NCBI RefSeq assembly: GCF_900188325.1
Contig: NZ_FZPD01000004.1
Span: 378,501 to 442,500 of the forward strand
Origin: Ekhidna lutea
GTDB lineage: Bacteria; Bacteroidota; Bacteroidia; Cytophagales; Cyclobacteriaceae
Direction of reading: 5' to 3'
DNA length: 64,000 nucleotides
A program made the position numbers and the translations under genes. The notes under the pieces are model-generated. The model searched no databases, was not told where the DNA came from, and saw only the letters and a list, made by a program, of their open reading frames with translations. Position 1 is the first letter of the stretch. Every line of letters begins with the position of its first letter. Shown here one piece after another: positions 28,938-64,000 of the stretch.

Positions 28938-29011
28938 GGACTCGTAGCACAACTGGATAATGCACCTGGTTACGGCCCAGGAGATTGGGGGTTCGAATCC
29001 CTCCGAGTTCA
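28938..29011 (+). tRNA. tRNA-Arg (anticodon ACG)
   Basis: Acceptor GGACTCG/CGAGTTC, anticodon stem CCTGG/CCAGG with loop TTACGGC (anticodon ACG, wobble-read CGN), T arm GGGGG-TTCGAAT-CCCTC, discriminator A, no encoded CCA. An integrase cassette follows, so this tRNA is the likely insertion target. Confidence 0.93.
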
Positions 29012-29267: not shown

Positions 29268-30512
29268 ATGAATAACACATTTAGCATTCTCTTTTGGCTT
29301 TTGAATAGTCGTATAAGTAAAAAAACAGGTGAAGCTCCTATAATGGCAAGGATTACTGTCAATGGTAAAAGGGCCGAACTCGCCACTGGCAAAAAAGTGA
29401 TGCCCGAGAAATGGAATGTTAATGCTGGTAAGGTTCGTGGGAATTCAGAAGAAGCGCGGGTAATTAATTATCACCTTTCTAAAATGGAAGTAAAGCTTCA
29501 AAAAATCTATGATAAACTGGTTGAGGACGATCAGTATATTTCCTCCTCAACTCTAAAAAATTTATTCCTTGGTAAGACCAATAAGCAACACTCCTTGCTG
29601 AAGCTTTTTAGATATCACAATGATTCGATTGAAAAGCAGGTGGGTAAAGAGTATTCATCAGGGACATTGGAAAGATACAAGACCGCCTATCGACATGTTG
29701 AATCGTTTGTGAAAGATCACTATGGCCGAGAGGATTTTGCTCTGAAGGATCTTAACTACACGTTTGTGAATGACTATGAACTATACCTAAAATCAACTAA
29801 GGGTATCGGACATAATACGACAATGAAATACATCCGGCAAATGAAGAAAATCATCATCTTGGCCATAAAAAATGAATGGCTTGATCGCGATCCGTTTGCC
29901 CGGTTTGAGATTACCACCAAAGAAGTCAAGAAAGGATATCTAAACAAAGAGGAATTATCAGAACTATACTCTAAAGAATTTGGAGCTGAGAGACTTGAAC
30001 ATGTTAGGGATGCTTTTCTGTTTTGCTGCTATACTGGTTTGTCATACTCAGATGTTAAGAAGCTAACACCAGACAATATTTCAAAAGGTATGGATGGTGA
30101 ATGTTGGATTTTTGTAGATAGAACCAAAACTGGATCTTCATCAAATGTTCCACTTCTTCCTATTCCAGCGGAAATCATTAAGAAATACGAAACCCATCCC
30201 ATTGTATTGAACACAGGTTGTCTCTTACCTATCATTTCAAACCAACGGGTAAATGCTTACCTAAAAGAGATTGCGACAATCTGCGGCATTAAAAAGAATG
30301 TTACTTTTCACATGGCCAGACACACATTCGCTACCACGGTTACCTTATCCAACGGAGTAGCGATCGAATCCGTAGGAAGTATGCTCGGTCATAAGAATCT
30401 CAAGACCACCCAGATTTATGCTAAAGTGGTCCAAGAAAAAGTGAGCGAAGACATGAAAGCTTTGAAGAATAAACTTGGCGCAAGTGGATTCGGAAAAGCG
30501 GTCAATCAATAA
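29268..30512 (+). CDS. Tyrosine-type site-specific integrase (IntDOT-like)
   Basis: 414 residues from the ATG at 29268. There is an N-terminal Arm-type DNA-binding domain (FSILFWLLNSRISKKTGEAP), an SAM-like core-binding domain (ERYKTAYRHVESFV) and a catalytic domain with HMARHTF (H-x-x-R), LGHKNLKTTQIYAKV (His/Lys and nucleophile Tyr). The first catalytic Arg is replaced by Ser (CCYTGLSYSDVKKL), as reported for IntDOT of CTnDOT. It would insert a mobile element at the tRNA-Arg(ACG) 0.26 kb upstream. An in-frame extension to a TTG at 29211 runs through the att-like repeat and is rejected. Confidence 0.92.
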   Translation: MNNTFSILFWLLNSRISKKTGEAPIMARITVNGKRAELATGKKVMPEKWNVNAGKVRGNSEEARVINYHLSKMEVKLQKIYDKLVEDDQYISSSTLKNLFLGKTNKQHSLLKLFRYHNDSIEKQVGKEYSSGTLERYKTAYRHVESFVKDHYGREDFALKDLNYTFVNDYELYLKSTKGIGHNTTMKYIRQMKKIIILAIKNEWLDRDPFARFEITTKEVKKGYLNKEELSELYSKEFGAERLEHVRDAFLFCCYTGLSYSDVKKLTPDNISKGMDGECWIFVDRTKTGSSSNVPLLPIPAEIIKKYETHPIVLNTGCLLPIISNQRVNAYLKEIATICGIKKNVTFHMARHTFATTVTLSNGVAIESVGSMLGHKNLKTTQIYAKVVQEKVSEDMKALKNKLGASGFGKAVNQ

Positions 30513-30842: not shown

Positions 30843-31616
30843 ATGGCTCGACAAAAGGGTATCATTAAACTGAAAGGAACCATCGGGGATGTGTCCTTTT
30901 ACAAATCAAAAGATGGCTATTTAGCCAGGGAAAAAGGTGGCGTGGACGGTGATCGAATCCGCAACGATCCGGCCTTCCAAAGGACCCGTGAAAACGGATC
31001 TGAATTTGGACGTGCCGGCAAGGCCGGGAAGATCCTGAGAAATGCTTTGCGACTGCTTTTGCAGAATGCATCAGACTCAAAAGTCACAAGCAGGCTGACC
31101 AAGGAGATGTTGCGAATCATCAAAACTGACACGAACAGTGCCAGGGGACAAAGGTCAATCGCTCAGGGTGATTTGAACCTCCTCGGTGGATTTGATTTCA
31201 ACATCAATGGGAAGCTGGGCGCTACTATGTATGCTCCTTACCAATCACAAGTTGATAGAGCTTCCGGAGCATGTGGTGTGACCATCCCAGATTTCATTCC
31301 GGGTAACACCATTGCCTTTCCTTCAGGTGCTACGCACATGAAGTTTTTGGTAGGTGCTGCAGGTGTTGATTTTGAAACAGAGGCGTTTGAATTTCAGCAA
31401 GTGGATAGCGGTGAATTGGTCATTGGACCGGATGTGGTTAACCAACTGGATTTGGCAGTGAACCTGACTGCAGACAATGAGCTGGATATCTTCCTGGTAT
31501 TGGGAATTGACTTCTTGCAGGAGGTGAATGGAGCGATGTATCCATTGAAAAATGGATCATACAATCCGTTGGCCATTGTAGGACTTGACCAATTCGTGGA
31601 AGCCCCAGCTGAGTAA
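30843..31616 (+). CDS. Conserved Bacteroidota protein of unknown function in integrase cassette
   Basis: 257 residues from the ATG at 30843. It starts MARQKGIIKLKGTIGDVSF and has a basic N-terminal half (YKSKDGYLAREKGGVDGDR, NDPAFQRTRENGSEFGRAGK, SRLTKEMLRIIK) and a beta-rich C-terminal half ending EVNGAMYPLKNGSYNPLAI. I recall similar proteins beside DUF5675 genes in other Bacteroidota, but know no function. The two-part design could be a nucleic-acid-binding or structural (virion-like) protein; that is speculation. DUF5675 follows after 7 bp, so they are one operon. Confidence 0.75.
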   Translation: MARQKGIIKLKGTIGDVSFYKSKDGYLAREKGGVDGDRIRNDPAFQRTRENGSEFGRAGKAGKILRNALRLLLQNASDSKVTSRLTKEMLRIIKTDTNSARGQRSIAQGDLNLLGGFDFNINGKLGATMYAPYQSQVDRASGACGVTIPDFIPGNTIAFPSGATHMKFLVGAAGVDFETEAFEFQQVDSGELVIGPDVVNQLDLAVNLTADNELDIFLVLGIDFLQEVNGAMYPLKNGSYNPLAIVGLDQFVEAPAE

Positions 31617-56403: not shown

Positions 56404-56943
56404 TTACGGAATGTCCGTGACCAAATTATGTCCGTGAGTAGAAAATGAGAAGCTACGATTACCGATTGAAGACAGCATTAAGCATTCAAAAATCGGATCG
56501 AATATCTGCTTTTCTTTCCTCCAATCAAACAAGAAATTAGCTCCAGAACCACCTTCTTTATCTAATCTCTCAATTACAATTTCAATCGTTTCCATAGGAG
56601 CAACATAAATTGGTGATTTAACATAATTCCGAACCAACTTCCCACTTGTTTCGAAATATTCGGCACTTGTAAGGAAAATTGTATCGTTCCGGTTTGGGTT
56701 TTTTATACTTATCGTAGCTCCTAGTGGAATTCTCTCTTTTTCTGTGTTTATATAGATTTCCGAATACACCGAAAGATAGGTTTGTCCGGATGATAAAGAA
56801 TCAAGATTTGATTGTGTAACCAGCCTGTTTTCCCAATCACTAACACCCAATGGTGGTATTATATCCTTATTCGTTACCTTTTCATTGCATGATCCTAGTA
56901 CTAGAATTAAATAAATGAGAAAAAATCGCATTCTTAAGGTCAT
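56404..56943 (-). CDS. DUF3124 lipoprotein
   Basis: 179 residues with a lipobox (LVLGSCNE). The C-terminal part has the DUF3124 pattern: YSEIYINTEKERIPLGATI, VERLDKEGGSGANFLFDW-like end (ERLDKEGGSGANFLFDW). Same domain as the gene at 57011 on the other strand, 67 bp away. The function is unknown. A later ATG at codon 5 is an alternative start. Confidence 0.8.
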   Translation of the reverse strand: MTLRMRFFLIYLILVLGSCNEKVTNKDIIPPLGVSDWENRLVTQSNLDSLSSGQTYLSVYSEIYINTEKERIPLGATISIKNPNRNDTIFLTSAEYFETSGKLVRNYVKSPIYVAPMETIEIVIERLDKEGGSGANFLFDWRKEKQIFDPIFECLMLSSIGNRSFSFSTHGHNLVTDIP

Positions 56944-57010
56944 GTGTTTATTAGTTATTGAATCAATTTAATCAAATTGGAATTAGTATCTTAAACTATA
57001 AAGTTTGGAC

Positions 57011-57589
57011 ATGATGCAAAAATTGTTTCTCTATATTCAGATTATAGGCGCATTCCTGCTGGTTGCCATTCCTCTAATATTCATCTTTAGATTTGGAAAC
57101 CAGATTTCTAACATATCATCCAGCATCAAGGGCATCCAAAGTAGTCATGAACAGGTAATTGAAACAATTAAATCAGACGCTCTAAATGATATACAAATCA
57201 TGGCTGGCCAGGAAATCTATGTCCCAGCCTATGCGAGCCTTAAATCTTATGAAGGTGAAAAGGAATTCAATTTTTCCGTAACGCTTAGTATACGAAATAC
57301 CGATCCAGGTCATTCAATAATTATTTCATCTATAGATTTTTATAATAGTGAGGGTGCTAAGTTTCAGCCATTCATTCAGGAACCATTGATAATAAAACCT
57401 ATGGCAACCAACGATTTCTACTTGTCAAAATCAGAAAGCTTTGGTGGTAGTGGAGCAAATTTCTATGTAGAATGGGTGGCCGATACATTGGTGAATGAAC
57501 CGGTAATAGAAGCTATCATGTTAGGGGCTGCACCTCATGGCTACTCTATCGTGAGTCCCGGAAGAGTTGTTAAAAACATATTGCCATAA
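57011..57589 (+). CDS. DUF3124 membrane-anchored protein
   Basis: 193 residues from the ATG at 57011. One N-terminal membrane helix (IIGAFLLVAIPLIFIFRFG), a short coiled region, then DUF3124 (IYVPAYASLKSYEGEKEFN, LSIRNTDPGHSIII, GGSGANFYVEW). It is divergent from the lipoprotein paralogue; one is a lipoprotein, the other an inner-membrane form. The function is unknown. It is followed by a bidirectional terminator. Confidence 0.82.
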   Translation: MMQKLFLYIQIIGAFLLVAIPLIFIFRFGNQISNISSSIKGIQSSHEQVIETIKSDALNDIQIMAGQEIYVPAYASLKSYEGEKEFNFSVTLSIRNTDPGHSIIISSIDFYNSEGAKFQPFIQEPLIIKPMATNDFYLSKSESFGGSGANFYVEWVADTLVNEPVIEAIMLGAAPHGYSIVSPGRVVKNILP

Positions 57590-58246: not shown

Positions 58247-58821
58247 GCAGGTAAAACAGCCTTGAGCTAGCGGCTGGTAAGCGGCTGCAATGAACGGAAC
58301 GCAGTGGAGTGGTTTGCGGTCCGTCTGTGCGGCGAGCCCCCGCGAGTGCGAGGGAAGCCTGACAGGTAAAGGCCGATCCCGATAGCTATCGGGAGAGGAC
58401 GACTGGCAGTGTGGATCAGCTTTGGTTCCCGCAAGGGTCTGCGGGACAGGTGCGGGTTGGTTGTGCGGCTGATCCAGTCTGACCGAGCTTAGCGGGCGAG
58501 CATAAACACTGGGCAGTGATGGGCTGGCATGTGGCTGGGCGTTGAAGGGCATAGCTGATTTATGAATTTGGATGGGTAACTAGGAGGCATTCATAAATGG
58601 CTATGCAAGGGATGGCCGGAAAGCCTGATGCCAGCACAGAAAAACTGCCCGTGAGGAAGAGGACAGCCAAAACAGGAGGCATGACAGACTACCGCACTAG
58701 CGGTACTGTAAGCGACAGGTCTTTACTGCAATCCGTAGGATGATAACAACTCTGCAGTAATGACCTGGAGGTCTGGCGTGACTGCTGAAAGGCAACCGAT
58801 GACGAACGCCGCTTTACCTGC
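58247..58821 (+). ncRNA. Large structured non-coding RNA candidate (about 575 nt)
   Basis: A sharply GC-richer block, not coding. Many perfectly complementary segments nest consistently on the + strand: end helix GCAGGTAAA (58247-55) with TTTACCTGC (58813-21); GGATCAGC (58413) with GCTGATCC (58468); GGGCAGT (58511) with ACTGCCC (58644); GCTGGCAT (58523) with ATGCCAGC (58628); GCATAGC (58549) with GCTATGC (58600); TTTATGAAT (58559) with ATTCATAAA (58589); CAGAC (58685) with GTCTG (58771); CAGGTC plus TTACTGCA (58716-30) with TGCAGTAA plus GACCTG (58753-67); hairpins at 58427-58446 and 58690-58705. An alternative partner for the 3' end is CAGGTAAAG at 58363. Loops are A-rich on the + strand, which favours this sense. 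Family unknown; no group II intron domain V, tmRNA or RNase P motif was found by eye. Confidence 0.65.
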
Positions 58822-61800
58822 TTATTTTTTCTTTTTGTAGCTACCTTTTGAATCTGCAGCGATTGCTAACTTCTCACCCTTTACTTTTCCTTGCAAATAG
58901 GATTTTATTACCTCCTCTTTCCTTTTGTCAACTCCATCAATGACCTTCTTAGCAGCTTCAATTTTGGCTTCTAATTTTGAAAATTTGGTAACATATTTCT
59001 TTTGCTCAGTTAGACTATCTGGGATTGGAATCTCAATAGCCTTCATCTTCGTGGCGTTAATATTTGATTGATTGATTGATTTAGATGCTTGAGATTTAGC
59101 ATAAGTCTGAAATTGATCCGAATTCATCAAATGATTGACATATTCAGGAATTGCCTTTTTTCTATCAACCTCAATTCGTATTAAGTATGATGCATAACAA
59201 TAATTGCCATCCAAATTGAACAAGCCAGTCTTTCCTACATGTTCTATCGAGTTGGTACGATTAAAAAGTATATTGCCCTTTGACAATTTGTATTTCTCAA
59301 ACTCTTCTTTCGGGATATCCACATGTTTCATATTTCCGTTATCGAACATGTATCCCTGGATGATCTCATTCATCCTGAAAATTTTATACCCTTTACCGTG
59401 AGTATTCATGCTGTCATTTATCCCATATTGAATTTTTTCACTCAGACTATCTATCGATTTCAAAGGAAAACCTGATGAATATATTGTCAAGTAAATTCCC
59501 TCCATTTTTTTAATTGAAGAGGCAATTTCCTTTTCAGCTTGATCCTTCTCAGAATCAATTGACGAGCACGACTTTATAAGCTCCCTCTGAGTTTCTAATG
59601 GAGGTAAGGGGATTTTAAAATTCCTGATGTCAGTGGTATTTATTTCTTTGTATTTGGTTCCCGAAGGCACTATTGACAAGATTTCTGACTTCAAGTAGTT
59701 TAGGACATAATAAAGATATTCATAATCAATTTTTTGTGGATTGCAGATGAAATTCTTATAACCTTGATTGGTCGCTAATGGAATCTTGTTAATGGAAATT
59801 TCACCTATTGTTGCTCGACTTGAAAAAATCACCGAATTAATCGGAAGGAGTTTAGCACTACTATTCTCAAGTCCTTCTTGAGTGATTTTCTTAGTCGTTT
59901 CATGTATATACTTCTGCTTGGTATCAACAAGAGTTGCCCAATTAATAGACCCATTATTCCAATAAGATGAAATCTTAGTGTTTGGTGTTCCTCCGCTTTC
60001 AACATCAGCCACACTTTCCAATTTAACGAGAGGCCAAACAGTATCTATGTTAACTGAGATACTCGGAATCAATGCAATCGATTTGTTAAAATCAGCTCTT
60101 CTAAAATCAATAAGATCAATAAGTGATGAATGAAAAACACTCTCTGAAAGATCTCCCGGTATTAGAGGGTTCAATAAGTTGTAATTGTTAATTATCAACT
60201 GATTTATCTTTTCTGGATTGTACTTATCATTCGGGTCATAGAGTGGAGTTGTGATATTATTAAGATTGAAGATATTGCTCAGCACTCGCTTATCCTCATC
60301 ATCCAAAACCACATTTCCCTCATCCTCGTCATCGCCTTCCAATTTATCCAAAGTGACTCCACCGAGATACTTTATGCCTTCATTTCCCTTCGCCGCGCTC
60401 CATTCATAGCCCAAAAATTCTTTCATTTGAGAGGTTGTGTTAGGGCTTTTTACAATGAGAACTTTCTGTGGGTTGGTGTTTGCAAGAACGAAATAGTATA
60501 CCTTGTCTTTTTCGTTTTCGGTGACGTAACCAAGGAAGCGCTTTTGTAACTCAGCTTCCTTCTCTTCTTTGGACAAATCTTTGAATGACTTCCTTTTCTT
60601 TAGGTTTTTGATTTCAGCCCACTTCTCAAATTCTTTTCGGTATTCTATAAATATTTCAGAATTCAATAGAGAGTCATCTGGCTCTCCCTTTAGTAAGGTT
60701 TGGTAGTCTTTAAAATCAAACTCCAGGTGTTCACAATATTTTTTGAGCAGGTTCTCATCTTCGAATAGTCCATCCTTGGATTTATCGTAATTGAACCATG
60801 CGTTAACCCTATTCATGTAATGATCGGCTGGTGCAGGATTTTCCTTTTTCCTTCTTAAAAAAAGCGTGACTGTATTAGTCCCTGTCTTGCCAAATGTTCC
60901 ACTTCCAAACTCTGAGATAGCTACGATATCAAAATATTTCAAAAGAATCTCCCGAGTAGCAACATAAATGTTGGTCGATTTGGATGTGCTCTTAGCTTTA
61001 CCTTTTGAAAGGATGGAAGATGGAACGATAATACTCGCAACACCTCCTGGTTTAAGTAATTGTTTCGCTCTTTCCAGGAAGAAAGTCTCAATACTGTTGT
61101 TATTAGGATAGCTCTTCTCTCCAACAGTTTCTATCAAATCGAATTTCTTTCTTTCTACATCAGACAGAGTTTCCAAATAACCCTTTACGCTATAAGGAGG
61201 ATTAGCCACCAAAACTGAAAAACTCCCGTCCTTAATATTTCGATCATTCATCTCCTTACCAGAGGAAAGTGCATCAGCATATACAATATTGATGTTATCC
61301 TGCCCATACATAAAGGCCGATACCTTAGCCACTTTAGATAGCCGGTATTCCTTCTCCACTCCATAAACGTTTTCATAGAAGTCACTTAGCTTGGCTTCCT
61401 TTTCTTTCTCGACGATAGGCTTGATTTCTTTTGCATACTCGTTCAAAAAATGACCTGCTCCACAGGCAAAATCAATTACTTTAGGAATTTCATCTCCTTT
61501 GGTTATTATTGATTCAAGTGGCAAAGACTTCAGGATAAACTTCACGATAGGCATTGGTGTGAAAAACTGACCCTCCGACTGTTTTACACCCTGATCCAAA
61601 AAACCCTCGAACATATCTCCCAAGAACTGATTCTCTTCACTGGCTGATTCACTGTCTGTCTTCAATCTTATGTCTTGAAGCATCTGAACTATCTTCAAAA
61701 GGATTGAGGTATTTTGAAAGAACAACTTTTCGTTGTGGACGTCTATGAAACCAAAATCATTGTTATTGAAAAACTTGAGCTCCTTGAAATATTTTTTAAT

Positions 61801-62859
61801 TGTGTCTTTAGTCGCATCAGGATCATTCTTGAAGAAATCAAAAGCCTTGTCTATCTGATCCGTACTTATATAAACTACATCCTCGCCCAGGAATCTTTGC
61901 ATACCTATTTGATACAATCGTTGGAGCCTGTCAATGAGACTGAATTGATCATCATATGCAATTCCTTTCCAATAGAATTTGAGCTCTTCAGGAAATTCGG
62001 TCTCATCCACAATTTTGCATAGAAACAGATTTACTAGCTTATCAAATGCATTTTCCCTCCCTGACACATTATGCTGTCTAAGTATAGTTGCAAACTCATG
62101 ATACTTGCCCTGGATATCAGTACTCGAAATCGTATTTAGATCTTTGATTGTATACTTTGTTTTTCCAACCTCATACGCCGGGATGTCTTCTTCGAAAATT
62201 CCCTTTGTCGCATAGTCTTGACTGTAAGTTTCTTTCCAGGCTTTGAAAATATCTTCAGCATCAAGTCCTTTGGCCTTTTCGTAAGAAAGCGGTGACTTAC
62301 TGGAAAGCTCATCAAGTAATTTGATGTTGTCTTTGAGTGTGATGAGATAGTAGTAAGGAGCCACTTTTCCATCTATAAAATCAGATGCATACAAACAAAT
62401 AAACTGTGTGCTTCCAGCTTGCTTTGCATAAGTGACAAGTTGACCTCCATTGGTCAGAGTCTTTTTCCAGGCAGTATCAAACTCCTTACCAGCTGTCTTG
62501 CATTCAATAATTAGCAACGACTTTCCAGTATTGTCTTTGATCATTATATCAGCTCGCCCACCACTAGCTCCATGTCCTACTTTCCACCTAGGTTCGAGCT
62601 CAATGTGTTCTGGCTTATAACCCTTCTCCAATAACCTGTGAACACATTCAAAAACGACAAAATTTTCATCATCGGAGAAATTGCAAGTTTGGCGTTCGTT
62701 GACTTTTAGTCCTTTGTCTTCAGGGTAGATGATTTTTTCATTCTTAAAATCGACCTTTAGAATTACATCTAGTTCCTTAAATTCTTTGATTAGTAAATCG
62801 TCAGATTCAGTAAATCCAAGAATCAATAGCGTGTCCTTAAAGTTGTTCTTTGTAATCAT
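58822..62859 (-). CDS. Single-chain restriction-modification-specificity enzyme (Type IIB/IIG, AloI-like)
   Basis: 1345 residues. The N-terminal nuclease is PD-(D/E)XK-like (GGRADIMI with D104; LLIIECK with E119 and K121). A gamma-class N6-adenine methylase follows: SEGQFFTP (about 428-435), motif I DFACGAGHF (463-471), motif IV NPPY (553-556). Two target-recognition domains at the C-terminus (WPLVKLESVADVESGGTPN; FPLKSIDSLSEKIQYGIND) resemble HsdS halves. There is no helicase, which excludes Type I HsdR. This RMS fusion resembles AloI/CjeI-type enzymes that cut on both sides of a bipartite site. It starts 1 bp after the AbiEii stop codon. Confidence 0.88.
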   Translation of the reverse strand: MITKNNFKDTLLILGFTESDDLLIKEFKELDVILKVDFKNEKIIYPEDKGLKVNERQTCNFSDDENFVVFECVHRLLEKGYKPEHIELEPRWKVGHGASGGRADIMIKDNTGKSLLIIECKTAGKEFDTAWKKTLTNGGQLVTYAKQAGSTQFICLYASDFIDGKVAPYYYLITLKDNIKLLDELSSKSPLSYEKAKGLDAEDIFKAWKETYSQDYATKGIFEEDIPAYEVGKTKYTIKDLNTISSTDIQGKYHEFATILRQHNVSGRENAFDKLVNLFLCKIVDETEFPEELKFYWKGIAYDDQFSLIDRLQRLYQIGMQRFLGEDVVYISTDQIDKAFDFFKNDPDATKDTIKKYFKELKFFNNNDFGFIDVHNEKLFFQNTSILLKIVQMLQDIRLKTDSESASEENQFLGDMFEGFLDQGVKQSEGQFFTPMPIVKFILKSLPLESIITKGDEIPKVIDFACGAGHFLNEYAKEIKPIVEKEKEAKLSDFYENVYGVEKEYRLSKVAKVSAFMYGQDNINIVYADALSSGKEMNDRNIKDGSFSVLVANPPYSVKGYLETLSDVERKKFDLIETVGEKSYPNNNSIETFFLERAKQLLKPGGVASIIVPSSILSKGKAKSTSKSTNIYVATREILLKYFDIVAISEFGSGTFGKTGTNTVTLFLRRKKENPAPADHYMNRVNAWFNYDKSKDGLFEDENLLKKYCEHLEFDFKDYQTLLKGEPDDSLLNSEIFIEYRKEFEKWAEIKNLKKRKSFKDLSKEEKEAELQKRFLGYVTENEKDKVYYFVLANTNPQKVLIVKSPNTTSQMKEFLGYEWSAAKGNEGIKYLGGVTLDKLEGDDEDEGNVVLDDEDKRVLSNIFNLNNITTPLYDPNDKYNPEKINQLIINNYNLLNPLIPGDLSESVFHSSLIDLIDFRRADFNKSIALIPSISVNIDTVWPLVKLESVADVESGGTPNTKISSYWNNGSINWATLVDTKQKYIHETTKKITQEGLENSSAKLLPINSVIFSSRATIGEISINKIPLATNQGYKNFICNPQKIDYEYLYYVLNYLKSEILSIVPSGTKYKEINTTDIRNFKIPLPPLETQRELIKSCSSIDSEKDQAEKEIASSIKKMEGIYLTIYSSGFPLKSIDSLSEKIQYGINDSMNTHGKGYKIFRMNEIIQGYMFDNGNMKHVDIPKEEFEKYKLSKGNILFNRTNSIEHVGKTGLFNLDGNYCYASYLIRIEVDRKKAIPEYVNHLMNSDQFQTYAKSQASKSINQSNINATKMKAIEIPIPDSLTEQKKYVTKFSKLEAKIEAAKKVIDGVDKRKEEVIKSYLQGKVKGEKLAIAADSKGSYKKKK

Positions 62860-63648
62860 CTAGAGTTTTGAAATAATTTCTTCTTTTAACCAATTAAAAG
62901 CAGCGTCCTGGTCATATTCAACCCCTGGTCTTATCAATCCTTCCATGTCACCCAGGAAATCTTTATCCTCTTGCTTTTGCTCTATATTTTGAAGGAATTG
63001 CTTAGCTGAAGGTGGGTGATCTACTGAAAATTCCATGTACTTGTGATAGCACACAATTAGTTTATCAAGATCCAACTCTGTGTTTTGAGATGCATAATAC
63101 AAGTCAAATAAATCCCTCCCCTTACGCCGCTGGTACAGTGCCCTAAGTTTGGTTCCAAGTAATTCGTTGATGTCATAGGTTGTGATTTCTGCATTGCCTG
63201 AAAACCATGGATTCTCTAACTCAAACGGATATTTTTTCCATCCAACCACAGTAAAATGCTCCCTACAGTTGATCTCAACTTTTAGACGCAACCTAATCTC
63301 CGAATACTCGGCATTGAACCGATATAGGATTGTGTTATTATTGGCTTTCTGCTTTACAACTCTGTCCTCGTCAAAAAAAGTTATAGACTCAGCAAGTGCA
63401 TCAAGAATGGGTTTGATTGGTCCTGGGTTTATCTGAACCAAATCAATATCTTCTGAATAACGAGGAGCCGGATCCAGGTAGAGTTTATGCAATGCTGTAC
63501 CTCCTCGAAATGCCAGATTCTCTTTGAGGAAATCATTATTGAAAATGTCAACCAATGCCCTACAAATGATCAGGTCTTGTTCAACATCATCCATTGATGT
63601 CCACGGAGCATAATCCTTCCATTCTGCAATATGAGATTTAGGTATCAT
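62860..63648 (-). CDS. AbiEii-type nucleotidyltransferase toxin
   Basis: 262 residues of the AbiEii/AbiGii family: FRGGTALHKLYLDPAPRYSEDIDL holds the GG-hinge and D-x-D of the nucleotidyltransferase site (FRGGTALHK; RYSEDIDLV), followed by a helical half (GTKLRALYQRRKGRDLFDLY). AbiEii toxins act on tRNA acceptor ends or nucleotides and stop growth on phage infection. It overlaps the antitoxin gene by 4 bp and abuts the restriction gene, so all three are one operon. Confidence 0.92.
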   Translation of the reverse strand: MIPKSHIAEWKDYAPWTSMDDVEQDLIICRALVDIFNNDFLKENLAFRGGTALHKLYLDPAPRYSEDIDLVQINPGPIKPILDALAESITFFDEDRVVKQKANNNTILYRFNAEYSEIRLRLKVEINCREHFTVVGWKKYPFELENPWFSGNAEITTYDINELLGTKLRALYQRRKGRDLFDLYYASQNTELDLDKLIVCYHKYMEFSVDHPPSAKQFLQNIEQKQEDKDFLGDMEGLIRPGVEYDQDAAFNWLKEEIISKL

Positions 63649-64000
63649 AGGTCGCTTTCGAGTTCAATGTTTGCATCCACCTTCCATCGATTTCCAGTGC
63701 TGCCTGCTTTTATCCCTTTCCTTGCGCTAAGCAAGACAGGATAAAAATCTTCATTCTGTAAACGAGTATAGATTGATTCAGCTAGCTGTCCATTCCATCC
63801 TTCAGTTTCAAATAAATAGCCCATGCGTTGTAAGACGCTTTTATTGGAGTACCAACTCAGCAGATTATTAAGATCTGATAATTCGATGGATTCCGATAAC
63901 TCCTCAAGGATTGCCAACATTCTGTTCATTCCACCCAAGTTGTGTTGGTTTTCAATTAAGTCGACCATGGTCAATGCCGGTGATGAAACCATGAAAAATC
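63645..64000 (-). CDS. AbiEi family antitoxin, C-terminal part (cut by window edge)
   Basis: The frame is open to the window end; 118 residues are seen. VSSPALTMVDLIENQHNLGG and NRMLAILEELSESI match the C-terminal domain of AbiEi-type antitoxins, whose N-terminal winged helix would lie beyond 64000. It neutralises AbiEii and represses the operon. Stop overlaps the AbiEii ATG by 4 bp. Confidence 0.82.
   Translation of the reverse strand, partial: FFMVSSPALTMVDLIENQHNLGGMNRMLAILEELSESIELSDLNNLLSWYSNKSVLQRMGYLFETEGWNGQLAESIYTRLQNEDFYPVLLSARKGIKAGSTGNRWKVDANIELESDL

What the first reader, a model, noticed from the sequence alone, without database searches (positions are those of the whole stretch)
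58247..58821. Large, ornate structured RNA candidate beside a defence operon
About 575 nt of GC-rich non-coding DNA contains at least nine long-range or local perfect complementarities of 5-14 bp that nest without conflict and close with an end helix. Unpaired parts are A-rich on the + strand, as in folded RNAs. It does not resemble any common bacterial RNA I can recognise. Its 3' end directly abuts the stop codon of the restriction-modification gene. Large ornate RNAs (ROOL, GOLLD, OLE-like) are rare, so a new class or an orphan intron are both possible. Basis: the pairings are seen; the RNA nature is inferred.
Basis: partly seen in the sequence, partly recalled or inferred. Interest (0 to 1): 0.85.

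Follow-up and report, generated by a model that had tools for sequence, protein, structure and literature searches.

The report
New large RNA in mobile islands
A stretch of 575 bases next to phage-defence genes belongs to a family of large folded RNAs that is missing from the standard RNA catalogue and travels with mobile DNA in one family of bacteria and a few relatives; its job is still unknown.

Summary
Window 58247-58821 (+) is a GC-rich, non-coding block that folds far better than shuffled sequence (z -6.1). It matches no Rfam family. A model of its 3' domain matches 97 of 390 genomes of the same family at E<=0.01, its own included. The copies show changes on both sides in 12 of 14 pairs of the 3' domain and 29 of 50 pairs of the full-length consensus. 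G-U pairs outnumber A-C mismatches 107 to 10, so the + strand folds.

The copies sit mostly in mobile DNA. Of 80 distinct copies, 17 lie beside an operon of two tyrosine recombinases and a primase, and 31 downstream of a small protein ("MARQ") of tRNA-integrating islands. The window copy lies in such an island: tRNA, integrase and MARQ at 28.9-31.6 kb; about 65 kb inserted relative to three relatives.

Best reading: a new class of large structured RNA, a core part of these mobile elements, probably serving their mobilisation or replication. The RNA class is well supported; the function is inferred. Transcription was not shown, and no promoter motif is enriched.

The parts
58247..58821 (+). structured RNA element (575 nt), window copy of the family
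   Evidence: fold z-score, relatives whose matches start at base 1 or end at base 575, covariation
58247..58255 (+). P1 closing helix, 5' strand (GCAGGUAAA)
   Evidence: the sixth base pair is UA in 12 and AU in 7 of 20 copies; copies were chosen for P1 pairing
58813..58821 (+). P1 closing helix, 3' strand (UUUACCUGC)
58332..58344 (+). conserved block GCGAGCC..GCG, 5' strand of a nearly invariant helix
   Evidence: covariation weak here (40 of 500 shuffles as high)
58490..58501 (+). 3' strand of that helix (UAGCGGGCGAGC)
58511..58517 (+). helix, 5' strand, pairs with 58644-58650
   Evidence: window fold; in relatives one pair is CG in 9 and UA in 7 of 20 (the window row is one base out of register there)
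58644..58650 (+). helix, 3' strand, pairs with 58511-58517
58674..58689 (+). 3' domain helix, 5' strand, with conserved CAUGACAG
   Evidence: 12 of 14 pairs with a change on both sides in 82 distinct rows
58771..58786 (+). 3' domain helix, 3' strand, with conserved CUGGCGUG
58378..58393 (+). perfect palindrome CCCGATAGCTATCGGG in a variable part; also at three other places of the genome in full and one in part
28938..29011 (+). tRNA-Arg, integration site of the island
   Evidence: tRNA; same letters as the tRNA-Arg (acg) of L126; synteny
29268..30512 (+). tyrosine integrase, 414 aa, first gene of the island
   Evidence: ORF; the similar L124 protein carries Phage_integrase, SAM_5 and Arm domains; the window protein itself was not scanned
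30843..31616 (+). 'MARQ' protein (my name), 257 aa, no family known
   Evidence: (E 4e-129), alignment; its relatives match nothing in Pfam, PHROGs or NCBIfam
58822..62859 (-). fused restriction-modification protein (N6_Mtase, two Methylase_S stretches, weak HSDR_N), cargo
62860..63648 (-). AbiEii, cargo
63645..63992 (-). AbiEi, the part inside the window, cargo

Best explanation
The block encodes a new class of large structured RNA (430-700 nt in the full-length copies, closed by a terminal helix) that is a core component of tyrosine-recombinase mobile elements, mainly in the window's own family (Cyclobacteriaceae). Shown: homology, covariation, + strand folding, location in mobile elements for most copies, co-inheritance with the island protein MARQ. 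Inferred: that it is transcribed, and that it acts in the element's own cycle (excision, replication or re-integration) rather than in the neighbouring defence genes. My working mechanism: the RNA is made when the element is active, folds into a compact particle (alone or with element or host proteins) and supports replication or recombination of the excised element; the genes beside it are exchangeable cargo. I put about 0.9 on the RNA class and about 0.4 on this function.
For: Relatives with exact ends. 3' domain, 88 matches, 82 distinct: 94.1% of cells paired against 76.7% in shuffles, 12 of 14 pairs with a change on both sides, covariation score 0.525 against 0.197, 0 of 500 shuffles. Full length, 20 copies: 29 of 50 pairs compensated, 0 of 500 shuffles for the whole. 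G-U 107 against A-C 10 (66 of the 107 from one pair), and 56 against 11 on the full length. Of 80 distinct copies, 17 lie beside two tyrosine recombinases with a primase or related protein, 31 downstream of MARQ on the same strand, 2 (the window copy and one in G423) have only the replication/excision genes of the island end within 8 kb. The RNA-recombinases-primase-XRE order recurs in G562, another family, and an RNA match lies beside the recombinase in G935, a third. RNA and MARQ distances correlate (r 0.74, 0 of 2000 permutations, 30 loci). Genes 3' of the RNA vary. Window island: tRNA-Arg, integrase, MARQ, about 65 kb absent from three of four relatives queried.
Against: No transcript data. 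The Bacteroidetes promoter motif TAnnTTTG (recalled) is not enriched in 250 bases upstream of 21 full-length copies: 4 found, 3.55 in shuffles. 21 of 80 copies have no recombinase operon, MARQ, island-end gene or Rhs motif within 8 kb, and 9 have only the Rhs motif. MARQ occurs without the RNA: 0 of 19 further MARQ loci had a strong match, two of them with close MARQ relatives. 11 of 13 class-level genomes with a relative of the second recombinase, and 4 of 9 in the family, show no convincing RNA match near it. Comparative data cannot tell RNA from folded single-stranded DNA. In the window the RNA is about 27 kb from MARQ, unlike most islands.
Confidence: 0.6

Rival explanations
1. The block works as folded single-stranded DNA: a recombination, replication or transfer site (attC-, oriT- or origin-like) read by the tyrosine recombinases or by primase and helicase loader. 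The covariation then reflects DNA folding.
For: Recombinase or replication genes near many copies; no promoter motif enriched; strand-specific pairing does not exclude ssDNA; homology between copies ends within 10 nt of the 3' end in 162 of 293 pairs, which are not independent, with a clear break between L140 and L141.
Against: A multi-branched fold of 430-700 nt, A-rich unpaired parts and many G-U pairs are more usual for RNA (general knowledge). The block is not confined to one recombinase type.
Confidence: 0.2
2. The block is a small non-autonomous transposon of its own (inverted ends GCAGGTAAA/TTTACCTGC) that inserts into mobile islands.
For: Inverted ends; matches that start at base 1 or end at base 575 in several relatives; several copies per genome.
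Against: No empty site: 0 of 21 joined-flank queries spanned the junction, but only fetched loci were searched. Related islands keep the RNA together with both flanks. RNA distances follow MARQ distances. Internal helices covary. By eye I saw no target duplication.
Confidence: 0.1
3. It regulates or is part of the neighbouring restriction-modification or AbiE system, for example as an antitoxin-like RNA.
For: It abuts the stop codon of the restriction-modification gene, and some other copies lie beside defence genes.
Against: The neighbours differ from island to island, and the RNA also occurs directly beside recombinase operons.
Confidence: 0.04
4. A known large RNA or intron remnant (group II intron, ROOL, GOLLD, OLE, HEARO).
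For: Size, closing helix, carriage by mobile elements.
Against: No Rfam match at the gathering score, and only chance-level hits up to E 10; loci of relatives give none.
Confidence: 0.03

Closest known systems
ROOL and GOLLD RNAs
   Different: No Rfam match. No match in phage records by blastn or in viral contigs by three exact patterns. Carried by integrative islands and recombinase modules. Oligomer formation untested.
IS110 bridge RNA
   Same: A non-coding RNA encoded by a recombinase element (start of the abstract of PMC11208158, seen in the listing).
   Different: The bridge RNA is much smaller (recalled); the type A recombinases here are tyrosine recombinases; guide-target matching was not tested.
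Integron attC sites
   Same: Single-strand folding next to a tyrosine recombinase and exchangeable cargo (recalled).
   Different: The block is far larger and multi-branched (size and layout of attC recalled).
tRNA-integrated genomic islands with defence cargo
   Same: tRNA site, tyrosine integrase, excisionase-like HTH, variable genes that include defence genes.
   Different: These carry the RNA and the MARQ protein as recurring parts.

Membership tests
group II intron | match to Rfam intron models (that the library holds them is recalled) | tested here: not met
   no intron family at the gathering score or among the four hits up to E 10
ROOL / GOLLD / OLE | match to the Rfam covariance model (presence in the library recalled) | tested here: not met
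ROOL / GOLLD / OLE | homo-oligomeric RNA complex | not testable with these tools
   needs native gel or cryo-EM
HEARO / omega RNA | match to the Rfam model | tested here: not met
HEARO / omega RNA | adjacent IscB-type nuclease | not tested
   no profile for it was run
IS110 bridge RNA | adjacent IS110 recombinase | tested here: inconclusive
   type A recombinases are tyrosine recombinases; other neighbours were not searched for IS110, and one 3' neighbour of L138 looks IS110-like from memory
structured non-coding RNA | compensatory base changes in relatives | tested here: met
structured non-coding RNA | transcription | not testable with these tools
   no RNA data at hand; promoter motif not enriched
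tRNA-integrated genomic island | insert with integrase after a tRNA gene, absent in relatives | tested here: met
   (three of four relatives queried)
tRNA-integrated genomic island | direct repeat of the tRNA end at the far side | tested here: inconclusive
   only 11-bp matches found
DNA transposon with inverted repeats | empty site and target duplication | tested here: inconclusive
   no empty site for 21 queries in the fetched loci; target duplication looked for by eye only

The most novel reading that the evidence does not exclude
The RNA is a working part of tyrosine-recombinase mobility: it assembles with the paired recombinases (or with the island integrase and replication proteins), and its 3' end marks the place where cargo, such as defence genes and Rhs tips, is joined. 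This would be an RNA-assisted tyrosine recombination system.
Probability: 0.12. Interest if true: 0.93.

Novelty: new variant of a known kind. Interest (0 to 1): 0.79.

Why it matters
Few classes of large structured bacterial RNA are known and their roles are mostly open. This one is tied to defined mobile elements with identifiable recombinases, replication genes and exchangeable cargo. That makes the open question of what such RNAs do directly testable: delete it and watch the island.

Tried and rejected
Rfam at the gathering score and up to E 10: nothing. Phage and plasmid records by blastn: no match or four chance hits of E 7. Viral contigs by three exact patterns: none; by MARQ: 17 stretches matched a pattern, none confirmed. 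Direct repeats around the window RNA and of the tRNA end: only 11-bp matches. Syntenic site by the DUF3124 gene: distant relatives only, not followed. MARQ structure: mean pLDDT 49 with three sequences, no fold match at E<=0.001, discarded. Promoter motif: not enriched. A spaced pattern in the own genome gave nothing. Eight literature searches: 53, 55 and 106 returned no paper; in the listings of the others (titles, starts of abstracts) I saw no description of this RNA. One paper was opened, for passages only.

Selection and dropped rows: the 88 copies are 88 of the 148 matches listed, mainly the stronger ones; weak ones were not fetched. Full-length copies were chosen for at least 8 of 10 P1 pairs (27, of which 26 distinct), so P1's pairing rate is partly by selection; 5 of the 26 were dropped for a doubtful 5' end (21), and L188, a near-duplicate, was left out of the 20. 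L186 is partly misaligned there. In the neighbour scan 82 of 115 listed proteins were given; the window's own neighbours and proteins over 1200 aa were not in the list of 115. The Rhs motif and the names of the XRE, HISLY and MARQ labels are mine or recalled.

Full report
OBSERVATION. The block at 58247-58821 is real and exactly placed. It is 56% GC in a region of about 35%, has no + strand ORF of 80 aa or more, and folds to -246.2 kcal/mol with z -6.1 against shuffles. The complement also folds well (z -8.8). The fold is closed by a 9-bp helix joining its first and last bases, and holds 17 nested perfect helices of 5 bp or more. The 3' end touches the stop codon of a fused restriction-modification gene, followed by AbiEii and AbiEi.

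NOT A KNOWN RNA. Rfam gives only two tRNAs in the window. A permissive scan of the block gives four chance-level hits, best E 2.3. Seven loci with relatives give only a tRNA, and eight loci, some with the same copies, give nothing at E<=0.5.

RELATIVES. The block is single-copy in its genome. By blastn 16 of 195 related genomes have a match at E<=0.001, the own genome and short palindrome matches included. Three matches start at base 1 and six end at base 575, besides the block itself. A 23-base pattern of the 3' end found 15 stretches in genome contigs, 12 of them from Belliella, Cyclobacterium, Lunatimonas, Nitritalea or genomes named Cyclobacteriaceae; by eye the Marinilabilia and Burkholderia stretches show only the bare motif. 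A covariance model of the 3' domain gives 148 matches in 97 of 390 genomes of the family at E<=0.01; part of these are short and weak. In a phylum sample it matches 6 of 395 genomes including its own, only one of the other five strongly.

COVARIATION AND STRAND. On 88 matches (82 distinct) the 3' domain has 94.1% paired cells, 12 of 14 pairs with a change on both sides, and a covariation score of 0.525 against 0.197 in shuffles; no shuffle reaches these values, and sliding the partners by 1-3 columns lowers the score to 0.02-0.12. That alignment was fitted to the model, which favours it. On an alignment of 20 full-length copies made without the model, RNAalifold predicts 50 pairs, 29 with compensatory changes. 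My shuffles give 0 of 500 for the whole structure; the helix at columns 172-186/477-488 is nearly invariant and weakly supported (40 of 500), and the number of pair types alone is not above shuffles for P1 (489 of 500) and for columns 499-504/718-723 (278 of 500). P1 was a selection criterion, so its pairing rate counts for little. G-U pairs exceed A-C mismatches 107 to 10; 66 of the 107 come from one pair, which leaves 41. On the full length the count is 56 to 11. So the + strand is the folding one. Unpaired bases are richer in A than U in 21 of 21 copies.

WHERE IT LIVES. Neighbours of 88 copies were labelled with profiles; 80 are distinct. Type A (17 of 80): the RNA lies beside an operon of two tyrosine recombinases and a CHC2/Toprim primase or a related protein, mostly with an XRE regulator at the far end; the first 3' gene runs towards the RNA in 14 of 16. 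Seven of the 17 have an Rhs-like motif within 8 kb, and G226, G019 and G079 hold copies about 8 kb apart. The same order occurs in G562, and an RNA match lies beside the recombinase in G935, both of other families. But 11 of 13 class-level genomes with such a recombinase have no convincing match within about 1.5 kb; in the family 5 of 9 do have the RNA. Type B (31 of 80): the RNA follows, on the same strand, a 255-aa protein of no known family that I call MARQ. Four have a 413-417-aa integrase directly after a tRNA gene (tRNA-Ser, -Pro, -Arg, -Pro). Some islands end with an excisionase-like HTH, a small protein with a weak replication-initiator match (E 0.067) and, in a few, a DnaC-like loader. 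Two copies have only this end; 9 have only the Rhs motif; 21 have none of these within 8 kb.

THE WINDOW ISLAND. The window copy was first filed as 'end only', but the window itself holds a tRNA at 28938-29011, identical to the tRNA-Arg of L126, an integrase at 29268-30512 and MARQ at 30843-31616. In three same-genus genomes (G005, G007, G003) the genes after this tRNA are those found at 94.6-106.6 kb in window-extended coordinates; a fourth, G009, does not show this order. So about 65 kb is inserted, and the RNA, restriction-modification, AbiE and island-end genes (64.5-65.9 kb) are inside. G006 has an integrase, MARQ and RNA after the same tRNA. No clear repeat of the tRNA end was found, and the insert may be a composite of several elements.

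MOBILE BY ITSELF? No empty site for the RNA alone was found in the fetched loci (0 of 21). Related islands keep the RNA with its flanks while genes change on either side. RNA and MARQ distances correlate (r 0.74, 30 loci), with some mismatched nearest neighbours and with close relatives among the loci. So the RNA looks like a core island part rather than a hitchhiker. 0 of 19 further MARQ loci had a strong RNA match, so MARQ does not need it. Homology between copies often stops at the RNA's 3' end (162 of 293 pairs within 10 nt; 54 of 124 at 85% identity or more), which any conserved unit between exchanged genes would show; L140 against L141 is one clear break close to the 3' end, after more than 1 kb of shared upstream sequence.

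CARGO. Of the first two genes 3' of the RNA, 82 proteins scanned, CapP and RmrA models match 3 each, SoFic 2, JetC 1, and a STING domain 1; many others are not defence genes. No control set was run, so enrichment for defence is an impression.

MECHANISM. Two element types with different recombinases share the RNA, and both can carry replication genes. I therefore place the RNA in the element's own cycle, most likely excision-coupled replication or recombination. This is inference. A DNA-level site is the main rival, since no promoter was recognised and comparison cannot separate RNA from ssDNA.

COMPARISON. It works most like ROOL and GOLLD in being a large structured RNA of mobile DNA with no known task (PMC12286853, passages), but it is not a member by Rfam. 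The bridge RNA of IS110 (PMC11208158, start of the abstract in a listing) is the nearest precedent for an RNA of a recombinase element. Eight literature searches showed no description of this RNA in their listings; the search words were narrow, and the library lacks most subscription journals.

Noticed in passing
window 29.0 kb to about 94.5 kb (extended): A roughly 65-kb insert at tRNA-Arg with integrase, MARQ, many further genes, restriction-modification and AbiE; possibly several elements in a row.
   Followed up: partly
L104, L105, L106: Two-recombinase, primase and XRE modules with the RNA in copies about 8 kb apart, among Rhs-like genes; a possible tool of Rhs tip exchange.
   Followed up: partly
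window 30843-31616; L255-L272: MARQ family: about 255 aa, no Pfam, PHROG or NCBIfam match, up to 8 matches per genome (G086), often followed by a small second gene.
   Followed up: partly
window 58378-58393: Palindrome CCCGATAGCTATCGGG inside a variable part of the RNA, at three other places of the genome in full and one in part; matches in related genomes.
   Followed up: no
window 56404-56943 and 57005-57589: Two neighbouring DUF3124 genes on opposite strands just before the RNA.
   Followed up: no
L115-L118, L132: Genes between related islands change in blocks, with a shared stretch of RNA plus about 155 bp in some pairs.
   Followed up: partly
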